A stretch of DNA of 64,000 nucleotides. Origin: Lucifuga dentata. Taxonomy: Eukaryota > Chordata > Actinopteri > Ophidiiformes > Bythitidae. Position numbers and translations under genes: made by a program. The notes beneath the pieces were generated by a model. The model was not told the origin of the DNA. It saw nothing but the letters and a program-made list of their open reading frames with translations, and did no database searches. Of this stretch, positions 7,804 to 64,000 are shown in pieces (the first letter of the stretch is position 1; each line of letters begins with the position of its first letter). The DNA lies in NCBI GenBank assembly GCA_014773175.1, contig VXCM01001416.1:62001-126000 (forward strand), written 5' to 3'.

Positions 7804-8362
7804 AGGACAATACTGTCGATTTTGCATGTTTGAACCAATGTATACAACCCTCACACGTGTTACCTCACTGACAACCATTTCCAAAAACATACTACTGGAG
7901 CGGTAAATGTTAGAATTATATTTCCTACCTTCCAGAACGCCATTGGTTTGAGTTCATTGTACACTATGCACTTGTGATAAGTAATCCATCACAGTAAACA
8001 CTACAGTATGTCTATTCATTTTTTTTTTTAAACTAACTTTATTTAACAGGTCCAACACAGAGCTGCACAGATGACAATGTATGTCTCCTCCAGGGAATAC
8101 AGTCCCAGGAAAAGACATCTTTTACCAAGAAATTAAAAACGTTGTGCTTAAAGTCCCTTCTACATTCAGACATACATGTTAGCAGGCGAAACATTGAATG
8201 TCAAGGTGGGTGTATCACCTGAACATTTGATTTTGAAAGATTAGGGGATCTGGCAAAATAATAGGAAATTAGTTTTGTTGTCGTTTTGAAAATAAGTTGT
8301 CAGTAACGTAATGTGTGTGCGGTTATATTTATTGGCTTACACATGAAAAATCGCTGGTGCTC
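7804..8362 (-). mobile_element. Fold-back element, copy 1 (subfamily A, reverse)
   Basis: Starts AGGACAATACTG after TTAA (7800-7803). The internal CTCCAGGGAATACAGTCCC is in reverse orientation. The right end is diverged (ATGAAAAATCGCTGGTGCT). Confidence 0.75.
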
Positions 8363-9552
8363 AGATGACACCACTCAAACCTCAGCTCTCTGGGTTTCTG
8401 TCTTAGGCCGGCAGTTAAATATTGACTGCAGTGTCAAACACATGGGTAGAATTTACAATTTCATAAATCAAGCAGCAGCCCTCTTTCATCATTATTAAAA
8501 AGCTGGAGTGTTAACGATGAGTCTGCTCGCTCATTTCACCAAAACATACTTTGTTTAGTTAACGGTACTCCTCTGGCGTCGTTGCACATGGGGAGGAGAG
8601 AACTGCCATGAAAAATGACTTCTTCAACAGCACAGAATGTCACACTACAAATCTAAGGTGGATGAACATTGCTCTCCTTGTTTCCTCCTGGCTTGATTTC
8701 CCAGGGGGTCGTACTGCTTGTTTCAGGGATTTGGACCTCCCATCATTCATTCAGGATCATGCTTGTCTCCACTTCTAGTGGGAGAGGGGGTGGGGGANGT
8801 GCTCTCACATCCCCAACACTGCCACATTGTAACTCAATAATAAACCAGGCCCATAATGTCTGCTGTCCTTGCTCACTTGGATTTTGGAGCATAAAATCTT
8901 TATTATTGGCCTCATTTACAAGGTCACCGTGGTCTACAAGAATTTTTTCTACAAGGCTCTTCATGCTATAAAGACAAAACATTTTCATGACAGAATAACC
9001 TGAAAATTAAAACGAAGATTAAATGAGTTTGATTAAAGGTGCACTTGCTGATTTTTACAGTTAGCATAATAGCAGAGCAAGTATTTTCCATGTAACACTA
9101 TTGAAATAAAACATGTCTTACTATGTTTTACACAGACATAATAATAATGCGTTTATTTCACCAATAAAGGTGAGATCAGCCCGAAAGTGTTTTTATTTAT
9201 TTATTTTTTTTCTTTTATTGTGGAGCTATAGAATGAAGTGCATTTATTGTAGTACATATATAAATGCAGGTATTATAAATTTGGACAATAACTGATTAAA
9301 GTTAAGTTATTTTTGGTTTTGTCAAGTCAGAAAATTTAATTCAATCAACAAGAAGTTCAAAATTTAATTGAAGTATTAAATTAGCAATTTAACATCAGTT
9401 ATAGAAACAGACAAATCTAAATTCTTCTAACCAGGCAGTATTACTGTAATTCAGTGTGCTAACCCTAAGCAAACCCTTGATGTAGTTCTACTTAGTGCCC
9501 TCTGCAATATACTTGTACTATGTTCAACAACGCATAACTTAACATTTTAGGT
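8363..9552. other. No recognisable gene
   Basis: A minus-strand 81-codon frame at 8743-8988 follows a TTTATAG and is interrupted by an N (8798). It matches no family I know. The rest is AT-rich. Confidence 0.45.
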
Positions 9553-9806
9553 CAGTCACCCTCAAAGTCCAGACTCCGGTCCAGATCCGGACCGAACCAC
9601 AACTGTCTCCGGACTTTGAGGAAATTATACTTTTCATATGTATTTATATTAGCTTCATGACATCACTGTGACGCAACGAGTCAAAATTCTCCACTTTCCC
9701 CACTGCAAAGTGAAATCAAATGTCCGACTGAGAGGTGACAGTGCAGCTGATTTGCTTATTGCAAACTGTCTTTGTGGACCTTTAAATTTGTATTTGAGTA
9801 CCCCTG
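9553..9806. mobile_element. hAT-like non-autonomous element, copy 1
   Basis: Ends are CAGTCACCCTCAAA and TTTGAGTACCCCTG (reverse complement CAGGGGTACTCAAA). The flanks TTTTAGGT (9545-9552) and TTTTAGGA (9807-9814) are a 7/8 match, as expected of a hAT 8-bp target duplication. A second copy lies at 15307-15727. Confidence 0.75.
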
Positions 9807-9814
9807 TTTTAGGA

Positions 9815-10492
9815 CAATAAGTTACCCTTGTGTTTTTATGTATTTATTTATTTTTTGTTTCAGTAAAGTGAACATATCTGGGTTTACAGTGCACATTCAA
9901 CCTATTTTATTCAAAGTTTATAGGATTTTTGGCTCATAGGATGCACTATTCATCACAAGAACATATGGCTATTTTATGGATGGCAACAGAATCCATTTGT
10001 AGAGGTTTACGATGAAATATAAAACTATCCTTTTCAAGTCGCTTTGGTTAAAAGTACAGAATATGTTAGGTGGATTTTCATTCCATTCCACTGTGGAAAT
10101 TAAAAGGAAAAAAATAACAGAAAAGCTTAAGTATGCTCCCGCATGTAACTGTGTACTTTTCCAAACTGTATGTTCCAAAAGTATGCGTTTCGGTTACTTA
10201 TCTCATTAGCATTTAGATTTCGGAACTATTTTTGTCCCTGAGAACGTAACTAAATACACCGCTGATGACTGACATCCTCTCCCACAGTGAGCGGTCAGTG
10301 GGGAACAGACGGTTGACTTTGACACTTTGGCAGTAATTAATTATCAAGCTCCAGAATGCACAGTGGGAAGTGAGCCTTTTCCATGGGACTCCAAGGCTAT
10401 AAATACAACATTAAACCAATAAACATGTTACTGTGAGTGCCATTCAAGATCACACACACATGTAGACATATCTTCAATGTGCCACAATTTAA
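9815..10492. other. No recognisable gene
   Basis: AT-rich and unique-looking. Open frames lack recognisable motifs. Confidence 0.5.
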
Positions 10493-10760
10493 AGAACCAT
10501 GTTGGCGATTTTGTATGTAAGTCCATTAGACACTACACGAATACATGTAACATTACTGACAACCCATTTTCAAAGCATAAAACCGTATTTTAGTTTTCCT
10601 TTCAAAATTAAATGTTCAGGTGATACACCCGCCTTAATATCCAGTGTTTCGATATGTTGAAAGGACAGTCATTTTAAATTTCTCCGTAAAAGCCATCTTC
10701 TCCTGGGACCATATTCCCTGCCAGAGATGTAGTTTAATTTATTTATTCATTTACACATAC

Positions 10761-10800
<40 letters not shown>

Positions 10801-10820
10801 NTTTATTCATTTACACATAC

Positions 10821-10861
<41 letters not shown>

Positions 10862-11122
10862 CAAGATTACATAAGCAAAAAAGGGAATGTGATGGAGAAA
10901 ATGCAATACAAAAAAAACCTCAAGGGGCTTAAATATTGTTTTTCATGCCGCTCTGTGTTGGATCAGTTAAATAAAGTTACTTTGACAAAAAAAATCTATA
11001 TAACTAAAATAATAAAAAAATTCCACTCCAGCAGTATAGTTTGGGAAATGATCATCAGTAACATAACATGTATGTGGTTGTATAAGTTGGGCTCAAATGT
11101 GCAAATTCACCAGTATTGTCCT
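10493..11122 (+). mobile_element. Fold-back element, copy 2 (subfamily A)
   Basis: Flanked by TTAA on both sides (10489-10492 and 11123-11126). Ends are AGAACCATG and CAGTATTGTCCT, and the internal TCTTCTCCTGGGACCATATT is forward. It carries an (AG)n tract and the assembly duplication around 10801, so its true length is about 60 bp shorter. Confidence 0.75.
10742..10860. repeat. Direct duplication of 59 bp around N 10801, including (AG)n (assembly joint)
   Basis: 10742-10800 and 10802-10860 are the same, each ending in an (AG)n tract. Confidence 0.85.
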
Positions 11123-14100
11123 TTAAGTTACATTAGCATCAATGATGAAAACAACTGATTCAAAGATTCAAAGTAGCTGCAGCTACTTTTATTTCCACTC
11201 ATACTGCCTCTCATCACTTTTTATCCAATAAGAAATTTCAAAATCACACCAGGAGAAGCTCAAGACCACAAACAAACCACATAACGGTGAATCAATACTA
11301 GTTGTAAACTTAAGATAACCTGTACAAGACAGAATCAACATGACAAGCAAGCTGTGAAAACGTCATCGTAAATGAATATGTTGGAGCAGCAAGTACTTTT
11401 CCCTCCACATATATATGTATTAAAGGAGAAATGCCATTTATTTGCATCCAGGACAATATATCTGACAGTTGTGCACTTCTTCAGCCTTGCTTTGTAAATC
11501 CGGAAAATGAGATGTTCAGTGTCTCATGCTTGTCCTCTACCATTTTCAATCATCTGCATCCAATATGTGCAACATTCAGTTCAGACAAGCATATGCTGTG
11601 GCACCCCTCTAAGGCCAATGAGTTCAATTTTGGAAATGCAACCGTGTAGCAGATGGTCGAAAGAATAGATGGACAGACAATACTAAGACAGATCAGGGCC
11701 AATCTGTACCCTCTCCCCCAGTTTCACCGTGGGTACAAAAATACACAAGTCTGATCAGAAGAAGTGCAAGGGCACTAATTTGCACCATGTTTGTTCAACA
11801 CAGGAAATCAGTTTGTGGAATGTGGGACATCGAATACAGCTGCCAAGCTTTAAAGTACAAATTAAGACTACGATTGTGTCATAATTCAGGGTCTGCCTTC
11901 CTTTAAGTACACATTTCACAACAGAATACAGAAACAGATGGAAAAGGCTGTCCTACTCCGAGGGCTCACCAAGATCAAGGAAAAAATATGGCCGTCTTTG
12001 GCCTGAATTTGCAGTAATGATGTTTTCAGATATAATTGTCAAGTTGGGAAATATCACAGAATAACAAATTTACCAGGTGTTGGCCCAAGTGGCCACAAGT
12101 CACCTGGAACGCTGGAAGCCAGACACAAATGCCAATGTTCCCGTTTGAAGTCGATATATATACTGTTAGTCATAATAGTCTGATATCATTTCCACACATT
12201 ATGAAACTAAAGTTACATGGATACCTTTACCTTCCCCTGGTGCACTGATTGCCATAAACTTGAGTATCAGGAAACTGGTCGCCGCTTTGTCAGCTGTTCA
12301 AGGGCAACTTCCTGGTTGTAAACTTGGAAATGTTCAATTTTACGAGTTCACAAGGGCCACACGAACACATTTCATAAAGATATGGAACTACAGAGTTGGC
12401 ATGGTGAACTACATAGTAACCCTTTGTGTGATAATTATGTTTAAAGTAAATTTTAGTTTTGAGAAATATCTTACTTGGTTGAGCCCAGGTGATCAAATTT
12501 AGATATCTAAAAACATAGGTGTGGGAGTCATAATTGTCCTATTTCAGAGTGTAGATATGTACATGATAATACGCTCAAACCATGTACTTTTTCTTCAAAG
12601 ATATTATAGAGTTAATCCTAGCTTTGATAAATTTAAAAGTTGATGGGCACAAGAAATGTTACTGCTTTGTTTAGTTTGGTTAAGTTTATCAAGAAAATAA
12701 TGTGTGTGTTTTCATTTCTCAAACTGACTTCACTGACCTATAGGCATGTATGAAATATTTTGGTTTATATCTGTCCAAGTTGCTGGTTGTTGCCAATGTG
12801 TATGTTGTAGTTGTTTTTTGTTCCTTATACCCTGGAGAGGAGTCTAAAAGAACAAAATAAATGAAATGAAATGAAACACCATTACTACTGGACTGTGAGG
12901 CTCGGCTGCAGATCACACTTTGGCAGATACCGTTTAATTTGGAGATGAAGAAAAGTTTCGGCGTACTAGCCTTCAGTTCAGGAGTTCTGAAACTATCAAT
13001 CCTAAATATGACCAGCCCTCCCTTAAAACAAACTGCCAAACAAGCATCGACCAGAGTTTTAATCAAGTTAAAAGAGGAACGCATTTTCAAAAATGGATTT
13101 CAGTGTATTTCACTGAAAGCTTAGGGAACCAGACTGACTTCGACAGGCCGGCTGTGCTCCATGATGATCATGGGCCTGAGTCTGTCTTGGGTTGAGTTTA
13201 AAGCGATGGACATGAACAGCTAGAATTAGTGCTTTGATTACCAAGTGCATCTTGTGCTGGTAGGAAAGACAGAAATGTTTTACTATTTACGTTGAGGCAA
13301 ACACATCCACCCATGAAACCACAAAATAACATTAGTTACATAATTAGTGGTGAAATTTATGATTCAGTGTTTGTATCACATGCCAAGGGACTGGCAATAA
13401 ATTTGAGCTTTCTCACTAATTATGAGGGTGTAACTAATTATCTGTTATCACTATTAAATAAATATGCCAAGCTTTTGGTCAAGCCACGGGAAAATAGCCT
13501 ACATAAAACATGCCATCTTTTGCATGGATGTACTTTCTAAATTCAGTCTTATGCAAAATTAGCATTCATCAAAACGGACTGCAAATATACAGAATTAAAG
13601 TAATGATGTATACGCAAAACTTTTAATTGTATTAATTATCTGCTACTGATAAATTAATGAATTTAGGCCAAACTCTCCTCCCTCGTGTCCTGAGAGATCA
13701 CTGTGACTAACTCATTATCCTAAGCTTCTTTATGGTTGGCAGTAAGAAGCTCTGTGTGATCACTGAGAACAGATACAAAGATTATGGAACTGTATTAGAT
13801 TTTAGATGAATTTACTCTCAATTTTACCAATCTCCTTTCTTCTTTGTGAGGAAAATTACATACAGTATGCCTCCTGAATAATTTCATGGGAAAAACAAAG
13901 ACTGGAACGGTTAAATAATGCGGCACTAAACTGAATTTTCTGAGCGGTAGCAGCCAAAACAGATTCAAAGTCATTCCTGATATATCCATGCCTGAAAACA
14001 CTTTAAAGCATTAAAGAAGAAGGATTGACTTCTGTAGGACTGTACTGTTTTAAAACAATATCCCTTGATAATATTAAAATTTATATGCAACACCTTTTTG

Positions 14101-14694: not shown

Positions 14695-14698
14695 TTAA

Positions 14699-15300
14699 AG
14701 GACCATACCGGCGATCGTGCATGTTTCAGCCAGTATATACTGTACAACCTGCACACATGTTGCGTTACTGACAATCATTTCCAGAACATAAAACTGTATT
14801 TTGGTTTCCTGTTATTTTTTCAAATCCCCTAATCTTTCAAAGTCAATTGTTCAGGTGATGCAACCAACTTAAAATTCAATGTTTTGCCTGCTAACACTTA
14901 TGCACAATTGTAGAAGGCATGGTCATTTTAAATTTATCTGTAAAAGCCATCTTCTCCTGGGATTATATTTCCTGGCAGAGAAATACATAGTTGTCATTGC
15001 AGCTTTGTGTTGGATCAGTTAAATAAAATTACTTCGGCAAAAAAATCTAATAGACATCTTGTTAGCTGTGATGGATTACGTATCTCAAGAATGTTTCAAA
15101 TCTCTAATCTCAAATCTCTAAATTGATTCTAGTAGTGTACTGGAATAAGCTGTAGCCAATGACAGTCTGGAAGGTAGGAAAAACATTCTGAAATTTACCA
15201 TAAAGCAGTCTGTATATTTTGGAAAATAACACAACATGTATGTGGACCGTACGTATACAGTATTTTGGGCTCAAACATGCGTGATCGCAGGTATGATCCT
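14699..15300 (+). mobile_element. Fold-back element, copy 3 (subfamily A)
   Basis: TTAA on both sides (14695-14698 and 15301-15304). Ends are AGGACCATACCGGCGATCGT and GCAGGTATGATCCT. A hAT-like element is inserted exactly at its right target site. Confidence 0.85.
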
Positions 15301-15306
15301 TTAAAC

Positions 15307-15727
15307 CAGTCATTCTCAAAGTCCAGATCTGGACCGAACCACAGCTGTCTCCGAACTCTGAGCAAATTATACTTTTCATATGTATTATTTGTATTATATG
15401 TGAGACATTGATGCGACGCAATGACTCAAAATTCTCTGCTTTCTCTACAGCGGAGAAAGTGAAACCAAATGTCCGACTGTCTGTGAGAATCTCTGCTTTG
15501 GTTTTGTCCAATCACATTCAGTCCCATCATCTCCATAGGATCTTTGAGAGTGACAGTGCAGATTGAGAGTTGATAGAGCCCCCCANNNNNNNNNNNNNNN
15601 NNNNNNNNNCCCCCCACCCCCGAAATTCCTGGTAAAAATTAGGATCCTAATCCGACCTTAATAAACATACCTGTCTTATTGAAAATGTTCTTTGTGGACC
15701 TTTAAGATTTGAATTTGAGTACCCCTG
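15307..15727. mobile_element. hAT-like non-autonomous element, copy 2
   Basis: The same ends as the 9553 copy, with perfect 8-bp flanking duplications CTTTAAAC (15299-15306 and 15728-15735). The middle is interrupted by the 24-N gap 15586-15609, so its true length is unknown. It is inserted at the terminus of fold-back copy 3. Confidence 0.85.
15586..15609. other. Assembly gap (24 Ns)
   Basis: The only multi-base gap. It lies between C-rich sequences inside the hAT-like element at 15307-15727. Confidence 0.95.
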
Positions 15728-15735
15728 CTTTAAAC

Positions 15736-22539: not shown

Positions 22540-23262
22540 TAAAAACTGTCATCTTAAATGTGATCGCCACAGCGTTCTCAAAATCCACCGTGATTTTGTT
22601 GCTTTTTATGTAATTATTTAGTCAGTTTTGTTCACCAATACCAATTTTTGGCATTTTGTAGCAGGAAAACCACAGTAAGTAATAACATTTAAAATGGCTC
22701 TGTACCAATTTGATGTCCTGGGGAGCCAATGTGCACAATACCAGGGCGATGGTGCAGCTAAATGGAATGAATGCAGCCATCATTGATGTTATTACTTACA
22801 CTTGTGTTTGACAAGCTGAAATTAAAAAGACCTATTGCTCATTTAAAGGTAGTAAATTATGTGAGAAAGCTGATTAAGCACGGGTGGGTCAAGAGTTGCT
22901 AATCCTAAAAAAAAAATAATGTAGTAGTCAGGCTTTTAATGAATGCACTCGCGTCCCACGGTGAACACTAGTGAACACATTTTCAAAAGGCTTTCCTGTT
23001 CTGCACCTGACCTTGACTTCTGACCTCACTTTTTTTTTGGGNGGGGGGGGGGGGATCCCCTGGGCATCAACAAGGGATTTTATGTAATCCGAGGTACTTG
23101 CTGTGGCCTCGTTACCTCTCACAATGTCACCTTAATAAATCATTAATCCCATGGTGAGGTTTGCATTAATTCACTCTTTGAGCCAAGCAAAATTTGAATA
23201 AGTGAGTAAAGTTCATAATAAATTCTTCGCAACACTCTATTTTCCTGAGAACAAGACTTTAA
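22540..23262. other. No recognisable gene
   Basis: Unique AT-rich DNA with a poly-G joint and N at 23042. Confidence 0.5.
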
Positions 23263-23825
23263 AGGACAATACTGGCGATTTAGCAGGTTATCCCAATATG
23301 TACAACCCACATACACATTATGTTACTGACAACTATTTCCCACTATATACTACTGGAGTGGCACATTTTAGAATTTTCTTTCCTGCCTTCCAGGCTGCCA
23401 CTGGTTTTGTTTCATTCCAGCACACTATAAAAAATCAACTTGAGAGACTTGAAACATAATCCATCACACAAAACATGTCTGTTAAGTTTATTTTTGTCAA
23501 AGTAACTTTATTTAACCAATCCAACACAGAGCTGCAATTTCTCCGCCAGGGAATATAATCCCAGCAGAAGACAGCTTTTATCAAGAAATGAAAACGGCCG
23601 AGCCTTCTACAATCGTGTAGAAGGATCATGTGTTAGCAGACGAAACCTTGAATTTTAAGGTGGGTGCATCACCTGAGCATTTGACTTTGAAAGATTAAGG
23701 GATTTGAAAAAATCACAACAAGACTAAAGTATGCTTTTAGGTTTTAGAAATTGTTTGTCAGCACCACAACGTGTATGTAGGCAGCATTATTGGGCTTAAA
23801 CGTGCAAAATTGCCAGTATGGTCCT
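23263..23825 (-). mobile_element. Fold-back element, copy 5 (subfamily A, reverse)
   Basis: TTAA on both sides (23259-23262 and 23826-23829). Ends are AGGACAATACTGGCGATTT and AATTGCCAGTATGGTCCT. The internal CCAGGGAATATAATCCCAG is reversed. Confidence 0.85.
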
Positions 23826-23829
23826 TTAA

Positions 23830-27851: not shown

Positions 27852-28393
27852 GTTAAAGATCCTTATATGGGCAGATCAGCAGCAATTAGGTCGCCACCAC
27901 TAGACTGAATGAGAATCAGCTGACAGGTGAATGCATAGCTTTAAATGCCTAGTTGAGAAGCTCACACTCCTTTTGCCAGCAGAAAGCCAGNAGGTGAATG
28001 CATAGCTTTAAATGCCTAGTTGAGAAGCTCACACTCCTTTTGCCAGCAGAAAGCCAGGAGCTTTTCCACCAGTTGTTTGTCTGCATAATATAAGTTTGTT
28101 TCTTTTAATTTAACATTAATGGATCATTTATTTCAATAATATTATTGGTTGCAATTTCTTTAATTATGATGAACCTTATTAGAGTTGGAAAAAACTTATG
28201 TATGTTTCTTTATTTTCCTTTTTAGAAAACAACCAGACAATTCACCTGTTAATCCTTCCGTGTGTGAGAAATAAATTATTGGCAAGAGAAATCCACTTGT
28301 GCTTTGGTGTCTAACATGCACACCCACTGTGTTAATTATTTCCAGACCCACCCAAGCCTTCTCCATAACCCACATCTTCCTGAAGATATTTAA
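27852..28393. mobile_element. Unidentified insertion nested in fold-back copy 6
   Basis: The host reads AAGGTTGT before and TAGGTTGT after the segment, a 7/8 match consistent with an 8-bp target duplication. The insert has no clear terminal repeats or coding frame and includes the assembly duplication at 27925-28057, so the original is about 475 bp. Confidence 0.5.
27925..28057. repeat. Direct duplication of 66 bp around N 27991 (assembly joint)
   Basis: 27925-27990 equals 27992-28057. Confidence 0.85.
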
Positions 28394-28401
28394 TAGGTTG
28401 T

Positions 28402-28698
28402 CTTCTCCTGGGTCTATATTCCCTGGTGGAGACATATATTTTCTTCTAGGTAGCTCTGTGTTGGACCAGTTAAGTAATACTATGACAAAAAAAATGTAAT
28501 AGAGGTTTTTGGATTTCTTATCTCAAGCATTTTTCAAGTATCTACAAGTTGATTTAAACAGCATACTGGAATGAACTGAAATGAAAGGCTGTCTGGAAGG
28601 TTGGAAAAACAATTCTAATACCGCTTCAGTTTTGGAAAATGATTGTCAGTATGTGGTCTGTATTACTGGGTTCAAAATATGCAAAATTGCTGGTATTA
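28402..28698 (+). mobile_element. Fold-back element, copy 6, right part
   Basis: Resumes with CTTCTCCTGGGTCTATATTC and ends GGGTTCAAAATATGCAAAATTGCTGGTATTA, after which the terminus has decayed. Confidence 0.75.
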
Positions 28699-29935
28699 GT
28701 ATTGTTAGTATTCCCATACCAACAAACCATATCTTTGAATGCAAATATTACATTTCACAGTCAGAAACACATTTTACATGGTGCAACTGTATTCCTTCAT
28801 AACAAAGATGGCAGCCAAATGTGCCATACAGTAGCACAACTTGTCCCACATAAGGACGTATGAATGTGTTCATAAAAATTTCTAACTAAAATAAGATTTT
28901 AAAAAAACTGATTAAGAAGGTCATTTTGTGATATGTTACAGGCTACCAATATGAGATACCATTCCTATATGCCATCTTTGATAGAATAGAGTTGCATTTT
29001 GTCAAACAAGTTAGAAACTATTGAACAATGATCATAATGTTATATGCTTATTGTAATCTTTATTACAAGAGGATTATAGTATTCTATTATACAGTATAAT
29101 TCAGCTTGATAGAAGAGTCTTTGGGGATGCCTTCAAAACACCAGTAAATGTTGCCAAACATGCTGGACTTTTAAAGTCTGGCTAATATTTATCTTTGAAA
29201 CAACAGCAATATCTACATAAAATAAATTCAAAATATGACGATGTGAAAACGATTATATAAGAGGCACACAGGGGCTAAGTTGACTATAGGTGATGCAATT
29301 AACAGCTTACTACAACTCTGTCACATCCAAATTCAATAATACAAGTGATACAAGTCACTTTTACTTTGTTTACCCTAAATGTATAAGTTATGATTGTTTT
29401 GAAATGCCAGTCTGCAAACTCTTAACTGCTATGCATAGTAAGCTGGTAGACTAAAGTATAGGCCAGTGAAATAAAATCAATAAAATTGTGGAAAGTTGCT
29501 CTTAATATTTTATTTATTCGCTGTTTGTAGTGCAGAAGGTTGTTGAGCTCATTGTCATTTTCAGAACAGGTTGCAGGAAGGAGATAATCTATGCGACGAA
29601 CAGGCACGCTCGATCCCATTGTGGCCAAAAACTTAACGAGAACAGCTTTCTCTACTTTAGCACCTAATTTATCAAGAGCACTTATGCAAATCAAGTCACT
29701 TGCAATTTTCCAGTTAGAAAACGTGAGGCTGAGCGCTGCAGCAGACAGGTGAGGGAGCAGACTGTGATTCTCTGCTGTGTGAGCCAGGGGCCACAAGGGG
29801 CCATGTCAGTGGGGTTTGACTGCTGGCGGTTCATTTATACATTTTACTTGGCAATTTATTATTTCATCCTCAGAGTTAAAGAGACAATCTGAAAATGAGG
29901 ATTTTTACTTTCTTTTTTATGCTTCTTTGACTTAA
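28699..29935. other. No recognisable gene
   Basis: AT-rich. A minus-strand 124-codon frame at 29422-29796 has no recognisable domain. Confidence 0.45.
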
Positions 29936-30385
29936 AGGGCCATACAGGCAATCATGCATGTTTGAGCCCAATAACACAGCCCACATACAGTATATGGTAT
30001 GTTACTGACAATTTCCAGAATATAAACCCACATTTTTATTTTTTCTTTTATTCTTTTAAATCCCCTAATTTTCAAAATCAAATATTCAGGTGATGCACAC
30101 CCACCTTAAAATTCAATTTTTTCACTTTCTAAAATGTATGCACTATTGTAGAAGGCTTTTACTGCATTTTACTTTTGTGGTAAAAGCCTTCTTCTCCTGG
30201 GACTATATTTCCTGGTGGAGAAATACATTGTCTTCCGTGCAGCTCCATGTTGGATTGGTTAAATACTGTTACTTCGGCAAAAAAAACCCTAACTGACATC
30301 TTGGTTCCTGTGATGGATTACAGTCAGCACCATAATGTATGTATGGATTGTATGGGCTCAAACATGCGCGATCACCGTATGATCC
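29936..30385 (+). mobile_element. Fold-back element, copy 7 (subfamily A, internally deleted)
   Basis: Begins AGGGCCATACAGGCAATCAT after TTAA (29932-29935) and ends GATCACCGTATGATCCT before TTAA. About 100 bp are missing between GTGATGGATTAC and GTCAGCACCATAATG relative to full copies. Confidence 0.8.
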
Positions 30386-30388
30386 TTT

Positions 30389-30416
30389 AAACATGCAAAA
30401 TCACTGGTATTGTCCT
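30389..30416 (+). mobile_element. Solitary right terminus of another fold-back copy
   Basis: Directly after copy 7, AAACATGCAAAATCACTGGT ATTGTCCT then TTAA repeats the right-end motif a second time with different diagnostic bases (ATTGTCCT against ATGATCCT). Confidence 0.6.
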
Positions 30417-31359: not shown

Positions 31360-31615
31360 CTGAGGGGAGGACCCAGCACATTTAAGGGGAGGAGCCAACA
31401 CATCTGATGGGAGGAGCCAACATATATGAGGGAAGGCCAGCACATCTGAGGGGAAGTCAACAAGTCTGAGGGAGGAGCAAACACATCTTGGGGCTCATCA
31501 TATCTGAGAGGAAGAGCAAACACATCAGAGGGGAGGGGCCAGCACATCTGATGGGAGGGGCAAACACATCTAAGGGGAGGGCAATACATCTGAGGGGAGG
31601 AGCCAACTGGGTGCA
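31360..31615. repeat. Degenerate GGGAGGAGCCAACACATCTGA minisatellite
   Basis: About ten units of 22-28 bases with the core GAGGGGAGGAGCCAACACAT followed by CTGA. Unit length varies. A 117-codon Cys/Pro-rich minus-strand frame is simply the translated repeat. Confidence 0.8.
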
Positions 31616-48762: not shown

Positions 48763-48766
48763 TTAA

Positions 48767-49330
48767 AGTTCCATACTGGCGATTGTGCATGTTTGAGCCC
48801 AATAAAATAACCTGCATATATGTTACGTTACTGATAACCAATTTCCAAAACATAAAATTGTATTTTACTTTTCCTGTAATTTTTCCAAATCCCATAATCT
48901 TTCAAAATCAAATGAAATATATACCCACCCTAAAATTCAATGCTTCACTTGCTTACACTTATGCATGACTGCAGAAAGCATGCTCATTTTAATTTCTGGG
49001 TAAAAGCTGTCTTCTCCTGGGACTATATTCCCTGGTGGAGAAATACATTGTCTTATGCGCAGCTCTCTGTTCAATCAATTAAATATAGTTACTTTGGCAA
49101 AATAAAAATGTCTAGACACCTCATTTTCTGTAATGGATTACTTATCTCAAGCATATTTCAAGTCTCTACTAGTTGATTTTTATAACTGGAACTAACTGAA
49201 ACCAATGGCTGTCTGGAAGATAGGAAAAACAATTCTAATATGTATCGCTCCAGTAGAATGTTTTGGAAAATGGTTTCATATATGCAGGTTTTATTTACTG
49301 GGCTCCAACATGCAAAACAGGTATAGTCCT
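48767..49330 (+). mobile_element. Fold-back element, copy 8 (subfamily A)
   Basis: TTAA at 48763-48766, then AGTTCCATACTGGCGATTGT. Internal CTTCTCCTGGGACTATATTC is forward. Ends CAAAACAGGTATAGTCCT followed by ATAA, so the right target site has one change. Confidence 0.8.
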
Positions 49331-50074
49331 ATAAAAGCAGAGTAAAATGGTCTCAAAATATGCCTTTATTGTTTTCAGAATAAAATTGACCTCCATGACA
49401 AATTTAAATTAAGATACAGCTATCACAAACTTTTCTGTATGTTCTCTGTGCGATTCTTCAGTTGTCACAGCAACTGGTGCTAATGATGTGTCAGAAATGA
49501 CATACGCAGCACATAACAGGTTGCACTGTGCACAAGATGTTAGCATGTTAGCCATACTGTTTCTTAGCACAGCATCCCTTTCATTGGTTTGCCAAAAATA
49601 CACAGCTGTAAGTCATAGTTAACAGCCCTATTAAGCTGTCAGCCTCTGCATGTCTGCACAACTGACCAGACGTCATGTCTCAACATTTCAACATTTCATT
49701 TCACAGGAACGTGTGGGGCCAACTGTTCTATCATCACAGCATGTCATGTAGCATTCCAGGAATTCCTCTGAAACCTCCCCCCCCCCAGGAAAAGCTTGAA
49801 GAACAGGCCTCAAACATCTTCACATCAGTCAGTACTGTTTTCCCCTGCGTGATTTATCATTATTCAAATGCGTTGCCGTGTGCAATAAATCGCTGTGCCA
49901 TTTAATGGAATATGTCAATATGACATTATCTGCAGTTCGTCAGTCTGAACGGGTAAACACTGCAATGACATACCAACTGTATACAAAGACAATCAGGACA
50001 GGGAGATTTGTGTTTTTCCACTTGGTCGTATTGTGTATGTTGGCTATCTGGAGGCATGGACATTTATGTTATAT
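49331..50074. other. No recognisable gene
   Basis: Nothing supported. Contains an 11-base C run near 49777. Confidence 0.45.
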
Positions 50075-51980: not shown

Positions 51981-51989
51981 TTTTTTTCT

Positions 51990-52735: not shown

Positions 52736-52740
52736 TTTAA

Positions 52741-55729: not shown

Positions 55730-56039
55730 ATGGCTATTGTTTCTGGTTCCTGTATAAGGGTAAACGGCTCTAGAAATGGGCCATCCATCTCAGCTACTCC
55801 TTCTGGATCTTCTGGACAATCTCAGCCCATGATAGCGGTATGGGAATGGCAGGATGACCTGGGCTACTGGCGGCCTTACAGTGGCCAAGTGAGCGCTCAC
55901 ATCGAGCGGTGTCTCTCACCGCGGGGCCAGAGAGCAGGAGGATCCGGCTCAACGAGCATCTGCCTCGGACAATCAGACCCTAGTCTGTCGCCTTATCTCA
56001 TAGACATACCAAGCTTGAAACAATTTCGGCAAGATACAG
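55730..56039 (+). CDS. dtx2: dtx2-like coding exon 1 (first WWE domain)
   Basis: The ATG at 55730 has a good Kozak context (AAC before, G after). An in-frame TTG lies 36 bases upstream but is no likely start. The exon encodes 103 residues plus one base: a Ser/Gly-rich leader of about 33 residues, then the first WWE domain. It ends at GATACAG with a strong GTAAGC donor at 56040. Phase 1 joins to exon 2 as a Gly codon, giving QDTG-KTRSVRRS, the layout expected between the Deltex WWE domains. Translation past the donor is intronic read-through. Confidence 0.88.
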
Positions 56040-58737
56040 GTAAGCCTGCGACGATACGACATATTTATACTTTATGCCTTTCATTAATTTTCCTTTTTTT
56101 TTGTTGTAGATCAAAGATACCAGGGCCGCTAACAGATAGCCACTTAGCGTTAGCTTGCTAGGCACTGTTGTTTTGATCGGAGTGTTTACATACTGTACCT
56201 AAGATTAGAAGACTATACTGTGTTAACTTTATGCAAACTTTTCATAAACTAATTTAGTGGCTATTAACATAACATTAACTTCAACAAAACGCCTCCTACT
56301 TGTCAGATTTTCGACTTATAAACGTGTGTAGTTTACATCAGCATATTGAGTCATTTAAACTCAGCTGATTCGTACAGCTGTCAGGATTCACGGAAAGCTG
56401 TAAATTATCGGATTGTAAACTAACTTTAAATCGTATGACAAAATAACAGAAAATGTAGTGAACTTGATTTAACTTCTGCCAATGTTCCTTCAAACACTGT
56501 TGAACTGATAACTAATAACAAAATATTCAATATGACCTTCCCCGGTTGGCCCCAGGTTTGGTCATCAAATAACTTAAGTATTATTTAATAAAATGTAGCT
56601 TAAAATCCAAAGCTATGTATGTTATTCCTTTACTTGTGACAGTTGAAATGATGTTTACTTGAACTTTACTGACATCTATAAGGACATCTGACATTTAAAT
56701 GAAACATCAGGGTGCTCCTATCAGTCACAGCCACACTATTAGTTTATTTAGTGCCATTTTAATTTGTCTCATTTAAAGGAAAATACTGCTTTCTTTCAGG
56801 AAAGACGCGGTCAGTGCGCCGGTCCCTGTTTGCCCAGTCGTCAGGCCTCGGCAGTGGCGTCTACTGGGAATGGCTCAACGATGATGGAGGATGGACTCCG
56901 TATGAGACTCGAACCTCCATCCTGTTGGAGCACAGTTACCAGGCCCGACAAGGCACAGCAGACTTGGGCCCGCATGGGTATAATTACATCGTGGATCTTA
57001 CATCTTTGGCACAAGTGAACAAATCCACGGGCTTCAGACGGCAGGTGCGACGGCAGTGTAACCTCCCCTATCCACTGGCCTCTGGGCCCGCGGCCATCCC
57101 CTCTGCTCCTNGACGGCAGTGTAACCTCCCCTATCCACTGGCCTCTGGGCCCGCGGCCATCCCCTCTGCTCCTCCCTGCTCCTGTCAGCAGTGTCTGAGC
57201 CACAGCAGTACGGGACCCATGCCCAGCCGCTCGCGACACTCCTTCTCGTCGGGCAGTCTGAACCGGCCCAGTCTCCAAGGGACGGGGAGGGCCACGGCAG
57301 CTCACCCCACCTCGGTCTACTCGCCGTATCCAAGGAGACCCCTCTCTGTTGGGGGGATGTCCTGGGGCAGCCCTTGGCCTCCGCCCCCTTTTGGTAGTCA
57401 ACTCTCTGCACCCCCTCTAACCAGCTCTGCCAGTGCAAATGGGTTGAGGTTGGTATCTGACAATTGTGTCTGTGTGTTAAACTGCAAAATGAATCAAAAC
57501 CAGACGTTATACATTTCCAACGGAAGCAGTGAGAGATTCTTGTGGCGAAGGGACTTGCAACATTACCCATAATGTCCCATGATATATGTCATAGCCCCCC
57601 CACCCTTCCTTCCCATTTCCCTTTGTGTTTCCTTTCTCTCGCCACCGTGATCTATGTGGAAAAACAGGAATGACAGAAAATGATCTTTAGTTTCAGCCCA
57701 GCAGTGGTATGCTTGTTTTGGCTCTTTGACAAAAAAAAAGAAAAGAGAGCAACTTTGACATAAAATCATACGAAAACACAAAATGGGAGCAAATACATTA
57801 TTTTCATTCTCAGTTATTCAGTAACTTCTCTGATTAATTTAGCAGATCTTTTAAATATCAAAATAGTAATAAACACCACGGCTAATCAGAACACAAGGTG
57901 ACATTTTCATATTTCTCATTTTGTCTAAACAACACTTAAAAAAAAAAACTCTAAGGAATAATTTTATAATGATCTAAACCTGAGAAAAGTAGCAAATTCA
58001 CACATCTAAGAAGCTGGAACCAGATAATGTTTGGCACAGTCAACTACACTATTAATTCACTAAATGTTTCGGCATTGTTCACTTACAGTTTGTCTTTGCG
58101 CTAATTTCATTTCACATTTGTTTTAATTATTTCATCTCCAAGCTGCTAGAAATAAAAAAAAAAAAAAAAANAAAAAAAAAATACCACAACTCACCATCTT
58201 CATTTGCGTAATGACTCATGACCCTGCTGGAAGTTGTTGCTAATTAAGAATCAAGGGCTACTTGCGTTTTATGTTACAAATTAATATAGTTGTGCCTAGT
58301 TTGTATTTTGTTTATTTGACAGAATTGCTTATCAGCATATTGTTCATTAGCCTATTTAAAGGACCATGCCAGCGATCATACATACTTGAGCCCAATGCAT
58401 ACAACCTGCATACATGTTATGATACTGACGACCAATTTCCAAAACATAAAACCGTATTTTAGTTTTCCTGTTATTTTTTCAAATTCTCTAATCATTCAAA
58501 ATCAAAAGTTCAGCTGATGCATCCATCTTCTAACACTTGTGCAGAATTGTACAAGGGACACTCATTTTAATTCTCTTTTTTTTTTTTTTTTTNTTTTTTT
58601 TTTTTTTTTGGTTCTTCCTGCTTGGTTCATTCTTGCTTTACTGACAGCGTGTCCGTGTCTTTGTTTCCTGTCCTGCAGCGTTCCTTCCATTTCGGTGCAG
58701 CTGAACAGATCCACCAGCGTGAGCTCTGCCCTGGCAG
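55730..58737 (+). CDS. dtx2: Deltex-family E3 ubiquitin ligase, dtx2-like, N-terminal part (three exons, runs off the window)
   Basis: The joined exons (55730-56039, 56800-57448, 58679-58737) encode about 318 residues after removal of an assembly duplication. Two WWE domains are visible: one around VWEWQDDLGYWRPYS (about residues 37-103, ending SLKQFRQDTG) and one around VYWEWLNDDGGWTPYE (about 123-190, ending in an RRQVRRQ basic run). A CSCQQCLS motif and a Ser/Pro-rich linker follow. In Deltex proteins the WWE pair binds the Notch ankyrin repeats and/or ADP-ribose, and the C-terminal RING-DTC module ubiquitinates substrates; that half is not in the window. WEWQD in WWE1, WEWLNDDG in WWE2 and CSC-QCLS favour DTX2 over DTX1/DTX4, from remembered family features and not an alignment. 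Intron phases are compatible throughout. The gene is close to the right edge, and its introns hold fold-back transposon copies. Confidence 0.88.
56800..57448 (+). CDS. dtx2: dtx2-like coding exon 2 (second WWE domain and linker; contains a false duplication)
   Basis: The acceptor is a TTTCTTTCAG at 56790-56799. The exon encodes KTRSVRRS, the second WWE domain, the CSCQQCLS motif and a linker rich in Ser, Pro and Arg. The donor I chose is AG|GTTGGT at 57449: it is weak at +3, but it is the site whose phase (two bases left over) joins cleanly to exon 3 as NGLS-VPSISV. A 62-bp direct repeat around the N at 57111 (57049-57110 and 57112-57173) is judged an assembly artefact. Without it the exon is 586 bp. 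A long open frame on the opposite strand here is a shadow of GC-rich codon use. Confidence 0.85.
57049..57173. repeat. Direct duplication of 62 bp around N 57111 inside dtx2 exon 2 (assembly joint)
   Basis: 57049-57110 equals 57112-57173. With the N the insertion is 63 bases, so the frame survives and a repeat of RQCNLPYPLASGPAAIPSAP appears in translation. Confidence 0.9.
57449..58678 (+). other. Intron 2 of the dtx2-like gene
   Basis: Holds two homopolymer tracts broken by single Ns (58171 and 58593) and the left half of a fold-back element (58360 to about 58575). No further coding exon was recognised. Confidence 0.6.
58360..58575 (+). mobile_element. Fold-back element, copy 10, left half only
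   Basis: TTAA at 58356-58359, then AGGACCATGCCAGCGATCAT. Collinear with subfamily A up to CACTCATTTTAATTCTC, where a poly-T/N joint ends it. The other half may be lost in the joint. Confidence 0.75.
58679..58737 (+). CDS. dtx2: dtx2-like coding exon 3 (small linker exon)
   Basis: A pyrimidine-rich acceptor (TTTCCTGTCCTGCAG, ending 58678) is followed by 59 bp encoding VPSISVQLNRSTSVSSALAG. The donor is G|GTAAAC at 58738. The last residues match the family context just before the conserved MTSVLMSA segment of Deltex proteins, so the next exon should begin with that segment. I did not find it before 64000, so intron 3 exceeds 5.2 kb. Confidence 0.75.
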
Positions 58738-59782
58738 GTAAACGGGTCACCAGCCATCCGTCCTGACCTCTGCACTGCACCTCTCAGCTGCTTCCAGCTT
58801 ACATTTACAGTCTTTGGTTTACATCGGCAGTTTAATCTCGCAGTCTTCCGCATTTGCTTCGTGAGTGTCGGTCTGTTTAAGAATACTGCAGGAAGCAGGA
58901 AAAAGGAAGAATGCACACACACCAAATTTTAAGCAAGTAGCTGTTGCATAAAATCAAAAAAAAAAAAATCAGGGAAAATGATGTGGCTTTAGGGTTTAAA
59001 CCACCTCCTACCAGAGAGAGACAGTTTTTAACAGTATTAGTTGTCGTGTTATTGGCGTATGTGCTGGATGAAAGCAGATTTAATTTCTAGAACAGTCCAA
59101 AGCTCTGGAAACAAAGGAATTATAGCTTTTTTAGTACCACAGCAACTTTGTCAGGAACATAAAAACTTTCTTTAATTTCACTCCAAGCAACGGACCAGTT
59201 ATGTTTCTTAAACCATTTTTAGCTCTGACTAAAAGGGTAGGTACTCCCCAGAGGTTCAGGATCTGCTGGGTGGAGATGCAAGCGTCCCACAGACAGGCTG
59301 TCAGCCACCATTTTCAAAAACATGCATGCTGTTTTTTTACACAATGAGAACACGAACAGTGAAATTTTACGACTTAATGAAAAACTACACAAAACTGGAC
59401 TGATGAGGAGGCGTGTGGCCACATGAAGAGATCTACACAGACTTGAACTTGTCCGCACTTGCTAAGTTTATCAAAAGTCATAATTACTCATAACGCAAAG
59501 AAGTGCTCAGAAAAATGAGTGCTGACTAAAATATGAAGCGAGACTACAAAAAAAAGTGGCTTTGATAGACGGAGATGTTACTCGCTGGAATTCCCATAAT
59601 CTTCACGGTATTTGAGGCAGGAAAGCACGGAGAATGTGATGCGTGTTTGTTGTGCTTTGCTTTCTCACGTCAAATCTATTTTGTGTTGTTTTTTTTTTTT
59701 TAAAGTTTTCTTTATCAGTCATGTTCAAATTTCACTCAAGTCTCAGGAATTCCATTTAGTTCATGCCTACATTTCATTTTAA

Positions 59783-60331
59783 AGGACCACACCGACTATT
59801 TTGCGTGTTTGAGCCTAATATTTTCAATTTTCATACACGTAACATTACTGACAATCATTTCCCAAAGCATACTACTGGAACAGTGAATTAAAAATGTTTT
59901 TCCTACCTTCCTCTGCCATTGGTTTCAGTTCATTCTGGTACGCTATTAAAATCAACTTGTCATTGCAAACAAGACATATATTCATGTTTTTTTTCAAAGT
60001 TATGTAATTTTAGTGTTTAAGTGCAATAAAAAAGTGCAGAGTGAATGTATGTCTCCACCAGGGAATATAGTCCCAAAAGAAGACCTGCGTTTATCGAAAA
60101 ATTTAAATGACTGTGACTTCATGAGGCTGTGTAACTATTAGCAAGTGAAACATAGATTTTTAAGGTGGGTGTATCGCTTGAATATTTGATTTTGAAAGAT
60201 TAAGAGATTTTACAAAATATCAGGAAAGCTAAAATATGGTTTTATCCTTTGGGAAATGATTGTCAGTAATGTTACATGTATGAAAATTGAATATATGAGG
60301 CTCAAACATGCAAAATGGCTGGTATGGTCCT
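59783..60331 (-). mobile_element. Fold-back element, copy 11 (subfamily B, reverse)
   Basis: TTAA on both sides (59779-59782 and 60332-60335). Ends AGGACCACACCGACTATTTT and TGGCTGGTATGGTCCT. The interior CAATAAAAAAGTGCAGAGTG is the reverse of the subfamily B block. Confidence 0.85.
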
Positions 60332-60697
60332 TTAAGGTGCAACTCAAAGAGCCCACCGAACTACTGAATATATGTGAGCGAACATACAATAATTACTGTG
60401 CATATCTGTCAGCAACTATATGATATCAATATCAGCAGTTTATTTTCATTAATGGTGATAAAAGGTTTTTATTTTGGATTTGGGGATTTTAATTGTTGAG
60501 CTCATCAGGGACAGTTTGCTCTTTTGAATGAGTTAAATCAGGAGAAAACAGTCTTAATATGTGTATTCAACAATTTAATTGTAAATCATAATACAATGAT
60601 TTGACATAGGTAATATCATGGTCAAATGTTTTGTTTTTTTTTTTGTTTTTGTTTTATATGAGTTAGGAGTCCAAGATAGGCCATACGGGATTATTAA

Positions 60698-61202
60698 AGG
60701 ACAATACCAGAAATTTTGCATGTTTGAGCCCAAAACACACACCCCGCATACATGCTACGTTCCTGACAACCATTTCCCAAAATATACTACTTCAGCAGTA
60801 AATTTTAGATTTTTTTCCTACCTTCCAGACTGTGATTTGTTTCAGTTTATTCCAGTACACTATTAAAATCAACTTGTAGAGATATGATACATGCTTGAGA
60901 TAAATAATCCATCACAGTGAACACTATTTAGTTTTTTTTGTCAAACTAACTTTTTAACCGGTCCAACACGAAGCTGCATGTCTCCGCCGCGGCTTTTATC
61001 AAGAAATTAAAAATGACCATCCCTTCTACATTCGCACATACATTTCAGCAGGTAAAACATTGACTTTTAAGGTGTGTGTATCACCTGACCATGACAAAAC
61101 ATAACCGGAAAACAACAGTTTCATGCTTTGGATATTGTCAGTAACGTGCATTGTGGGTTGTATTTATTGGACCTACGCGTGCAAAATTGACGGTATGGTC
61201 CT
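60698..61202 (-). mobile_element. Fold-back element, copy 12 (subfamily A, reverse, shortened)
   Basis: TTAA on both sides (60694-60697 and 61203-61206). Ends AGGACAATACCAGAAATTTT and ATTGACGGTATGGTCCT. The centre lacks the usual CAGGGAATATAGTCCC block. Confidence 0.85.
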
Positions 61203-63710
61203 TTAAAATTGTATTTCTAGAGTCCACATATTATATTTTTATTACGAGCCTCTATGACTTTTTAATGACGCACAGTAACACTTTATGGTGATCGCCCCTC
61301 TACCGCAGTAATTTAAACAAGTCCACCCTGACAACTAAGTCCTTGGCAGTCTCTAAATTGTTATTGTCATAAAAAATGCAACATTGACATGCAAAGTGTG
61401 TGTTCATTCATTTACTGTTACACACCACTAAAATTCTAATTATGTTTCTTGGTTGTGATAAGCAGGCGGAGTCAATACAGCGCGTTTGGCGGGTAGCTGC
61501 TGGACCGTAACCTCATTAGTGACAAACGCATCCAACCGTGACTTTGGCGAATTGTTTAAGATGGAAGGTCACCCATGCAGGATCTTTTCCAAAATGTATC
61601 AAGTCACCATCAGGGCCGCATTTTAGAATCACGCATGAAAATACTGGTTTTAATTACAATTTTAATTAATGAACTAATGTGAAGATACGACCAAGGTTAG
61701 CTTTTTGAGGGACAAAGCAGTTTGCAGTGGAAGCAGAAATGTGTCAAGAAAGGTATTTTGATAGATGTGTACAGAAACCCATATTCAAAACCCGTATTTA
61801 ATTCAAGCGGTGAAGTTTGAAGTATTGAAATTAAAAAAAATGTGATTTTGTGACTTTCTGTTTAATGGCTGTCTAGGCAATGACAGAATGCCGGTTTGCT
61901 CCTTCAGTTTTATCTACTTCGTCAGCCATTTTGGTAGTTTTACATTGGTCTTAACATCAATTTTGCGCTATTTTACCATCGTTATTATGAGAATTGTTAG
62001 TATTTATTCATAGACCGAATGTTCTGCTCACAAGTTCGGGCTGTTCAGGCTCACAAGAATAACTGTCTCCTACAGTGCCCTATGAGAACAAAGTAAATGA
62101 GCTAGCAAGCTAATATTGCTAGCTTGAAGGAGGATATATGCGTACTTCTAGCAGCTTTTATTGACCGGCTAAAACATTTATGTCCAGTGAACAGGTCTTT
62201 GTCAAATGGTTCTAACTTTTTAGCCCCATTCACACCTCACATCAAAGTGCAATCTGTCTCCACATGCGACATCTAAATATGGAAGAATGTACCATAACTC
62301 ATGATGTAAGTTTGCATAGAACGGATCACGTGCAGATGAGGTCACAGCGAGCCAAGTATAAATGCATTCTGCTCAGCTGGGACGTTCGTGTAAAATCCAC
62401 ACAAAAGTTAAAAGCATTGCACAACCTTGTCTCTTTGCTCGCTCGCTGTCCTTAGAAAAGGCATTTTGAATTGGGAGATGCGACCTGCACCTGCAACATG
62501 AATGCAGACTGCAACAACCCACGCAAAAAGTTACTGGAGTCTTTTTTTTAAAAGTTGATGCTGTTTTATAGTTAAGTTGTTCAGGGCGGTTGATCGCGGT
62601 CGTACTGTGGGGTTTATCCCACTCTTTCTTGTGTCTAGACACATCACCCCTCAAACAGTTGGTGAAACCTAAGGATAGCAACGCGTTCCTCCTTCGGTGG
62701 CACCGGTACTACAATGTTCGGTATCCAGTGGATCAATACCTGCTGAGTAGCTACGGTGCTCTAAATAATGCATTTTGTACTCATCGGCATTACAACTCAC
62801 TGAAAATATAGAAGAGAGGACAGAAAGGGGGGTTTGTGTCTAAGACTAAGAACGGCGTGGCTTTATTGGATCATCCTGGCTGATGTTCAGTCTCTTCGAA
62901 ACAAGATCGATGAGCAGCAAGCCACGTCACGTTTTCAACACGCTTAAAAAGATGCCTGCATTTTGGCTATATTGGATTATATCTATAGCTGAAAACAGAG
63001 GTTACAACATGTTTTGGAGGCCGTGAAAGCAATGTGAGACAAACATAAAAAAACAAACTCAACTATCAGCACAGTCGAGTTTATATGTTATTTTATATAG
63101 TTTGAGTTTATGTTAAATAAACTTGAAACCTGAGTTTACAAAAATCTGTTTTTTAAAAAAAAGTTATTTAACAATGATAAAGAATTGGAAGCTTCAACGT
63201 ACGACAAGATTATCACAGTCAAAAAGTCCTGATGTCTCTCACACAAATAACCTGCAAATTCCACTTCGCATAGTGGGTCTGACAGTAGTTATTTTCTTAG
63301 CTTAGGGGTGTTGTATGTTGACTAAAATAAAGTGGGTCTGTGTTTTACCGAGTGAGCGATGAATGCCGTTTGGATTAACACACCCTGACTTCAGGGCTAC
63401 GGTTTGCTTGGGTTTCGCTTCGTATTTCCAAAGTGGAAAAACACAGTTCTTTGAAATTGGTTTTTCCTGGTAATTTAAGCTTTTTGTAACTCTTTGAGGG
63501 GGAAAAGTAGTTTTTGTCCCACTGCACCTAGTTTTAATTAGTTGCTCCTAAGGATCGTTGTCATCATCATCAAACCCGCTCCTCGGTTTGCTGATCGGTC
63601 CACCTTCCAGGCTCACTCAGTGGATGTTTTCGGCGAGCTTTATGAGGCTGAGGGTCGTCGTCATAAATCAAGAATGAGGAGTAGACAGAAAGAGTCTGCG
63701 TGATGGTTAA

Positions 63711-64000
63711 AGGACAGTACCAGTATAATTTTGCATTTAAGCCCAGTAATTACTGCCGGCATACACATTACGTTACTGACAATTTCCGAAACATAAAACC
63801 ATATTTTGTTTAACTGATATTTTGTCAAATCCCCTAAGCTTTCAAAATCAAATGTCCAGATGATACATGCATCTTAAAATTCAACATTTGGCCTGCTACC
63901 ATGTATGTCCGAATCTAGAAGGGAAAAGCCGTCTTCTCCTGGGACTATATTCCCTGGTGGAGACATACATTGGCTTCTGTGCAGCTCTTTGTTGGATCTG
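63711..64000 (+). mobile_element. Fold-back element, copy 13 (cut by the window edge)
   Basis: TTAA at 63707-63710, then AGGACAGTACCAGTATAATT. Forward CTTCTCCTGGGACTATATTC and TTTGTTGGATC place it in subfamily A. Confidence 0.8.

What the first reader, a model, noticed from the sequence alone, without database searches (positions are those of the whole stretch)
7804..64000. A high-copy fold-back element at TTAA sites, at least 13 copies in one window
Copies start at 7804, 10493, 14699, 22006, 23263, 27624, 29936, 48767, 52153, 58360, 59783, 60698 and 63711. The ends read AGGACCATAC(C) and (G)GTATGGTCCT, and inverted arms extend inward with GCATGTTTGAGCCC and ACTGACAATCATTTCC. Every left end follows TTAA, and most right ends precede TTAA. 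None encodes a protein. TTAA duplication is the hallmark of piggyBac-type transposition, but these ends lack the usual CCY start, and because TTAA abuts a palindrome a TA duplication cannot be excluded. I do not recognise the family by name.
Basis: partly seen in the sequence, partly recalled or inferred. Interest (0 to 1): 0.75.

Follow-up and report, generated by a model that had tools for sequence, protein, structure and literature searches.

The report
Abundant Kolobok-type miniature transposon
A short non-coding jumping element that sits at TTAA sites is repeated tens of thousands of times in this genome; a longer sister version still carries a piece of a DNA-binding gene typical of its likely parent, the Kolobok transposons, which makes it an unusually rich but ordinary kind of genomic parasite.

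Summary
In detail: the 13 listed copies are one family of ~588-nt elements (596 with TTAA), with 93-nt inverted ends and TTAA at 13 of 13 left and 7 of 11 right ends. They cover 10.6% of the window. In the whole assembly the exact terminal 14-mer occurs 53,062 times, against 11 for the reversed control.

The ends are AGGAC...GTCCT: the piggyBac motif CC[C/T]T is not met, while TTAA plus RR...YY ends is the published Kolobok signature.

A 935-nt sister subfamily carries a truncated THAP DNA-binding domain; it was found at 10 of 18 THAP loci read (77 listed). THAP is one of three domains of Kolobok transposases. The commonest subfamily is that element minus the THAP segment. Some derivatives are large palindromes, and the arms tend to differ between subfamilies in concert.

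Best reading: an old Kolobok-superfamily MITE family made by internal deletion and moved in trans. No intact transposase was found. New member of a known kind.

The parts
7800..8370 (-). E01, element copy, one end intact, other end replaced
   Evidence: nhmmer model 12-596; TTAA left, GACA right
10489..11126 (+). E02, element copy, both ends TTAA; contains a GA-rich repeat with an assembly N duplication
14695..15304 (+). E03, element copy, both ends TTAA
22002..22543 (+). E04, subfamily A copy; right flank TAAA; right arm shortened
23259..23829 (-). E05, element copy, both ends TTAA
27620..27863 (+). E06 left part (model 1-253)
28378..28703 (+). E06 right part (model 249-587), separated from the left part by ~545 nt of other sequence
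29932..30390 (+). E07, element copy with internal deletion, both ends TTAA
30391..30420 (+). second terminus directly after E07: probably a remnant of another copy's end; no N beside it
   Evidence: nhmmer model 565-596 at 30389-30420
48763..49334 (+). E08, element copy; right flank ATAA
52149..52739 (+). E09, subfamily A copy; right flank TTTA
58356..58588 (+). E10, truncated copy (model 1-237)
59779..60335 (-). E11, subfamily A copy, 93-nt arms, both ends TTAA; folds far better than 100 shuffles (z -11.7)
60694..61206 (-). E12, element copy, both ends TTAA
63707..64000 (+). E13, element copy cut by the window end (model 1-319)

Best explanation
These are miniature, non-autonomous members (MITEs) of the Kolobok superfamily of cut-and-paste DNA transposons. 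A Kolobok transposase made elsewhere, now or in the past, binds the long inverted ends, excises the element and inserts it at TTAA, which ends up on both sides. The small elements arose by internal deletion of a larger THAP-carrying element: subfamily T still holds the first two thirds of a THAP DNA-binding domain, and subfamily A is T without that segment. The resident copies are old and diverging about neutrally. Shown: TTAA specificity, TTAA on both sides of clean nested insertions, RR...YY ends, the THAP segment inside copies of the family, and the relation of T and A. Inferred: that the transposase was Kolobok, that the THAP segment is its own first exon, and that B lost the segment too.
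For: TTAA at 13/13 left and 7/11 right ends, and at 20 left and 19 right ends of 23 near-complete copies, 8 of them from the window. 48 exact junctions of the element's end with its own internal TTAA site in the genome, reversed control 0; of 6 loci fetched, L033 and L035 show the outer copy split with TTAA on both sides. Ends AG...CT fit 5'-RR/YY-3' with TTAA (PMC9587614, passages), and a Xenopus Kolobok (XKol A3) also begins AGGAC (PMC6004289, Table 5 seen in passages). 77 THAP matches listed in the genome, a lower bound (150 of 162 candidates scored); of 18 such loci read, 10 lie inside family copies, 8 of them with TTAAAGG at both ends and 2 with the left end lost or decayed; the consensus frame matches Pfam THAP, E 5e-13. 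A aligns to T 1-291 and 635-935, and B runs past A's breakpoint to T 323, so A lost the segment. In contig C2324 the element's left half (T 64-294, 305-392) and THAP exon (T 412-629, 80% identical) are colinear, with a complete THAP domain.
Against: No DDE catalytic domain or H2CH finger was identified. Among the 77 listed THAP matches the longest open frame is 383 aa, and no pair of family ends bounds it in the 5 kb read, so no intact intronless transposase was found. THAP also occurs in P elements and host genes (recalled); the segment's closest solved relative by sequence is THAP11 (E 8e-8). The fifth terminal base is C, so the stricter T2-MITE motif AGGRR is not met. C2324 lacks the outermost 63 nt of the left end and no right end was recognised for it. 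In 4 of the 6 nested loci the outer copy does not resume cleanly.
Confidence: 0.85

Rival explanations
1. Kolobok MITE, but the THAP segment was captured from a host or unrelated THAP gene (a MITE next to a THAP exon picked it up), so it says nothing about the transposase.
For: The segment's nearest solved relative is THAP11; it ends just after the CSDHF motif, as a captured exon could; the C2324 THAP gene has a MITE-like stretch upstream, which capture would also give.
Against: T is ancestral to the most common subfamily A; the THAP of C2324 is closer to T (40 of 66 identical) than that of L038, THAP11-like by eye (30), or the four other THAP domains compared (16-25). None of this excludes capture from the C2324 gene itself.
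Confidence: 0.25
2. A piggyBac MITE with unusual ends.
For: TTAA target.
Against: piggyBac elements carry a CC[C/T]T terminal motif needed for transposition (PMC2872659, passages); here the consensus end is AGGAC. THAP is not a piggyBac domain (recalled).
Confidence: 0.04
3. A Tc1/mariner-type element that duplicates only TA, with a strong T-TA-A preference.
For: The letters of filled and empty sites are identical under this reading (argument from the sequence).
Against: Only 12.3% of TA dinucleotides in the window lie in TTAA, yet 13 of 13 left ends do; a THAP segment is not expected in Tc1/mariner (recalled).
Confidence: 0.03
4. A Sola3-type MITE (another TTAA superfamily, recalled).
For: TTAA target.
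Against: The THAP segment fits Kolobok (PMC6004289, passages); Sola3 ends were not compared with any source.
Confidence: 0.03

Closest known systems
Kolobok superfamily (Xenopus XKol subfamily A3, PMC6004289; zebrafish Kolobok-1, PMC3392230; passages of both)
   Same: TTAA target duplicated, RR...YY ends (PMC9587614, passages); XKol A3 ends AGGACATGTC / AGGACGTGTC share AGGAC; Kolobok transposases usually carry a THAP domain (PMC6004289).
   Different: The window family is ~588 nt and non-coding; no DDE or H2CH domain was found; by eye the sequence beyond AGGAC does not follow the printed XKol ends. The sequence of zebrafish Kolobok-1 was not available.
T2-MITE (Xenopus; Unsal and Morgan 1995 and Hikosaka and Kawahara 2010, seen only as references and passages in PMC6004289)
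   Same: High-copy TTAA MITE with an AGG start, attributed to Kolobok.
   Different: Defining AGGRR motif: here AGGAC, so the fifth base is not R.
Angel (zebrafish; passages of PMC3636048; Izsvak 1999 seen only as a reference)
   Same: High-copy fish DNA element with long inverted repeats able to fold back.
Coral CMITE piggyBac MITEs (PMC2872659, passages)
   Same: TTAA target, empty allele known.
   Different: CC[C/T]T ends.

Membership tests
Kolobok superfamily | TTAA target, present on both sides after insertion | tested here: met
   13/13 left, 7/11 right ends; clean nested insertions at L033 and L035, 2 of 6 loci read. 4-nt versus 2-nt duplication cannot be told from the letters.
Kolobok superfamily | termini 5'-RR ... 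YY-3' | tested here: met
   consensus AGGACCATAC...GTATGGTCCT
Kolobok superfamily | autonomous member with DDE, THAP and H2CH domains between the same ends | tested here: inconclusive
   truncated THAP inside family copies at 10 of 18 THAP loci read, of 77 listed; complete THAP colinear with the left half in C2324; DDE and H2CH not found
T2-MITE family (strict) | TTAA target plus terminal AGGRR | tested here: not met
   TTAA met; fifth base is C in the consensus
piggyBac / piggyBac MITE | terminal CC[C/T]T | tested here: not met
   AGGAC at the ends
Tc1/mariner | TA duplication without fixed outer bases | tested here: inconclusive
   outer T kept in 13 of 13 left flanks, against a free TA target; duplication length not decidable from sequence
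MITE | short, non-coding, high copy, inverted ends | tested here: met
   588 nt, 93-nt arms, no Pfam match in 7 frames, 53,062 exact terminal 14-mers in the genome
Angel (zebrafish) | sequence identity to Angel | not testable with these tools
   no Repbase/Dfam library or fish genome collection was on hand

The most novel reading that the evidence does not exclude
New subfamilies of this MITE are founded by inverted duplication: one arm is copied onto the other (hairpin-templated synthesis or a fold-back switch), which makes both ends identical and gives a fresh, highly mobile founder. The signs are subfamily differences that appear in both arms at once, and fully palindromic derivatives, one kind of which has a centre present in hundreds of copies.
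Probability: 0.2. Interest if true: 0.6.

Novelty: new member of a known kind. Interest (0 to 1): 0.4.

Why it matters
By rough estimate the family makes up several percent of a ~598 Mb genome, and it preserves a deletion series: a THAP-carrying intermediate, its THAP-less derivative, and palindromic derivatives. That makes two open questions directly testable: how MITEs descend from autonomous elements, and how their two arms stay alike. It also gives a concrete lead (contig C2324) to the parent transposase.

Tried and rejected
Double termini seen in fetched copies (L003, L018, L019, L023) looked like a biological structure, but in the sequences printed each sits on a single assembly N with the same sequence on both sides, so they are artefacts. 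The extra terminus after E07 in the window has no N and stays as a remnant of another copy. Empty sites inside the window: none; joined flanks of 10 copies found no spanning match. E03 lies beside another repeat but was not shown to be inside it. A hit in IMG/VR (L001) was a chance match that the family profile does not recognise; other public scans gave nothing. No other TTAA-flanked inverted pair of at least 13/16, 80-2500 nt apart, was found in the window outside the family. Rfam: 0 matches at gathering scores. Protein searches with the THAP peptide and with a possible transposase exon of C2324 found no homologue, so the resemblance of that exon (minus-read 4823-5158) to Kolobok transposases is recall only and is not used as evidence. 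Selection on the THAP segment: 42 synonymous, 84 non-synonymous and 0 stop changes against neutral fractions 0.25/0.71/0.04. That is near neutral, and the copies had been picked by a profile, so the lack of stops proves nothing.

Not done: the second nested-insertion pattern and a genome-wide count of THAP-carrying copies, because the genome machine did not answer.
Full report
What is there. A profile built from 10 copies finds all 13; a further terminus remnant follows E07. The element is 588 nt (596 with both TTAA), with inverted arms of 93 nt including TTAA; the arms are identical at 86 of 93 consensus positions, and the local self-complement score is 151 against a maximum of 43 in 200 shuffles. 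TTAA precedes 13 of 13 left ends and follows 7 of 11 right ends. The exceptions are TAAA, ATAA, TTTA, and E01, whose end is replaced. In 10 copies with both sides no duplication beyond TTAA is evident. The family covers 6,759 of 64,000 bases. Copies differ from the majority consensus by 13-28% (10 copies). No protein domain was found in the window family (7 frames). Two copies folded as single DNA strands do far better than 100 shuffles each (z -11.7 and -5.1).

How common it is. The window is part of contig C1171 of a 597.9 Mb, 8,189-contig assembly. The exact 14-mer TTAAAGGACCATAC occurs 26,446 + 26,616 times there; the reversed control occurs 5 + 6 times. Scaling by bases per exact terminus gives about 23-72 Mb, or 3.8-12% of the genome and 39,000-122,000 full-length equivalents. 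This is rough: the 200 kb sample was chosen with the hit list in view and is richer in the 14-mer than the genome (150 against 89 per Mb; window 78), and assembly duplications inflate counts. In that sample the profile found 38 pieces covering 6.4%.

Empty sites. Because the element has an internal TTAA, copies nested in copies are a natural empty-site test: the other copies are the empty site. The junction CACCCACC-TTAA-AGGACCATAC occurs 28 + 20 times exactly, control 0. Six loci were fetched. In L035 and L033 the outer copy resumes right after the inner one: ACACCCACC-TTAA-[element]-TTAA-ATTTC (L035) or -AATTT (L033), where the consensus reads ACACCCACC-TTAA-AATTC. In L033 the inner copy appears as two overlapping pieces. 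The other four are less clean: L031 has a truncated inner copy, L032 a right TTAA followed by other sequence, L034 a decayed right end, and in L036 the outer copy resumes but the inner right end is rearranged. So TTAA is the target and stands on both sides after insertion. Whether 4 or 2 bases are copied cannot be read from such sites, since T-TA-A with an element AAGG...CCTT gives the same letters.

Which superfamily. Papers (passages read): piggyBac needs CC[C/T]T ends (PMC2872659). Kolobok makes TTAA duplications and has 5'-RR/YY-3' ends (PMC9587614). Xenopus T2-MITEs have TTAA and AGGRR, and Kolobok transposases usually have DDE, THAP and H2CH parts (PMC6004289). The family's AGGAC...GTCCT meets the Kolobok rule and fails piggyBac; it fails the strict AGGRR at base five, so I do not file it as a T2-MITE, although one Xenopus Kolobok (XKol A3) also starts AGGAC.

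The THAP link. THAP (PF05485) is listed at 77 places in the genome, a lower bound. I read 18 of these loci (L030, L037-L052, L055), choosing L039-L049 because their matches end early in the profile (positions 58-62), so 10 of 18 is not a rate for all 77. Ten lie inside copies of this family: L037, L039, L040, L041, L043, L044, L046, L047, L048, L049; eight have TTAAAGG at both ends, while L040 and L046 have lost or decayed left ends. L042, L045, L050, L030, L038, L051 and L055 do not; L052 is treated below. This subfamily T has a 935-nt consensus: the family model 1-324, a THAP-coding stretch with ATG at nt 436, then model 302-596. The frame matches THAP positions 1-61 of 87. T copies are 6-10% from their consensus and the THAP frame is close to neutral in resident copies. 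Subfamily A, 13 of the 23 near-complete copies compared, equals T without 292-634; subfamily B has sequence homologous to T up to 323, past A's breakpoint, so A lost the segment. B also lacks the THAP segment; whether B lost it or never had it is open.

A possible parent. At C2324 (L052) a THAP exon 79.8% identical over 218 nt to T's continues into a complete THAP domain (Pfam E 1e-15, positions 1-87). Upstream of it, colinear, lie T 64-294 and 305-392; the gap before the exon largely consists of another repeat. Shuffled controls reach 29 where the real scores are 216 and 132. This looks like a decayed, less-deleted relative, but the outermost left end and a right end are missing, so exon capture next to a MITE stays possible. 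The longest open frame listed with a THAP match is 383 aa; that locus (L030) holds a partial MITE copy beside the frame but no pair of family ends around it in the 5 kb read.

Arms and palindromes. Comparing both arms between subfamilies, changes occur in both arms together more often than chance. In the window set: 8 concerted, 5 one-arm, 2 arm-specific sites (P about 2e-7 from hand counts). In the larger set: A vs D 7 concerted and 6 one-arm (P 3e-6), A vs B 6 and 9 (P 3e-4), D vs B 2 and 5 (P 0.02); A has 13 copies, D 4, B 5. Sites are not fully independent, so P values are rough. Within resident copies the two arms are no more alike, or hardly more, than arms of different copies (A 0.152 vs 0.153; D 0.242 vs 0.236; B 0.286 vs 0.308), so matching happens in founders, not after insertion. 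True palindromic derivatives exist: L019 and L023 are two right parts of a T-like element around a shared centre, and L003 is two A-like elements head to head. The centre 20-mer occurs 312 + 240 times, control 0; two of these were read, and some neighbouring pairs in the list are probably assembly duplications. So such a palindrome has probably spread itself. Co-evolution of both arms with a changing transposase would be a simpler reason for concerted change; it does not by itself make the palindromes.

Verdict. An old, very abundant MITE family of the Kolobok superfamily. New and useful are its abundance, the THAP-carrying intermediate and the palindromic derivatives. Whether the family already has a Repbase/Dfam name could not be checked. 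My literature searches used class names and motifs, not this sequence, so they do not show that it is unpublished.

Noticed in passing
window, 25 runs of N; e.g. 204, 10801, 20598, 26725, 27991, 36514, 37820, 38265, 40790, 57111: Single Ns join stretches whose sequence is repeated exactly on both sides: 16 of 25 N runs have at least 15 nt, ten of them 59-67 nt; in the fetched sample 34 of 53 single Ns. This looks like an assembly artefact that fakes tandem duplications.
   Followed up: yes
55676-57110 (+): Two WWE domains (Pfam), as in deltex-type ubiquitin ligases (recalled); copies E10-E13 lie downstream of these exons.
   Followed up: partly
9579-9730 and 15321-15479: Another repeat, 80% alike, with CAGTCA and CTCAAAGTCC at its start; hAT-like ends by recall. 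E03 sits directly beside one copy.
   Followed up: partly
5473-5729 and 54797-54990: Two other hairpin-like elements with 56- and 76-nt arms; the reported arms do not abut TTAA.
   Followed up: no
27852-28396: About 545 nt of other sequence inside copy E06, including one N duplication; a short imperfect repeat near AGGTTGT flanks it.
   Followed up: no
31360-31620: Minisatellite-like array with a ~22-nt unit.
   Followed up: no
G000:C2324:22843-23178 (-): Cysteine-rich open frame downstream of the complete THAP exon; possible transposase core exon by recall only, no Pfam family over its cut-off and no homologue.
   Followed up: partly
L030 (G000:C3554) 3845-4020: A partial MITE copy overlaps the upstream end of an open frame carrying a THAP domain and may lie in or beside a THAP gene.
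   Followed up: no
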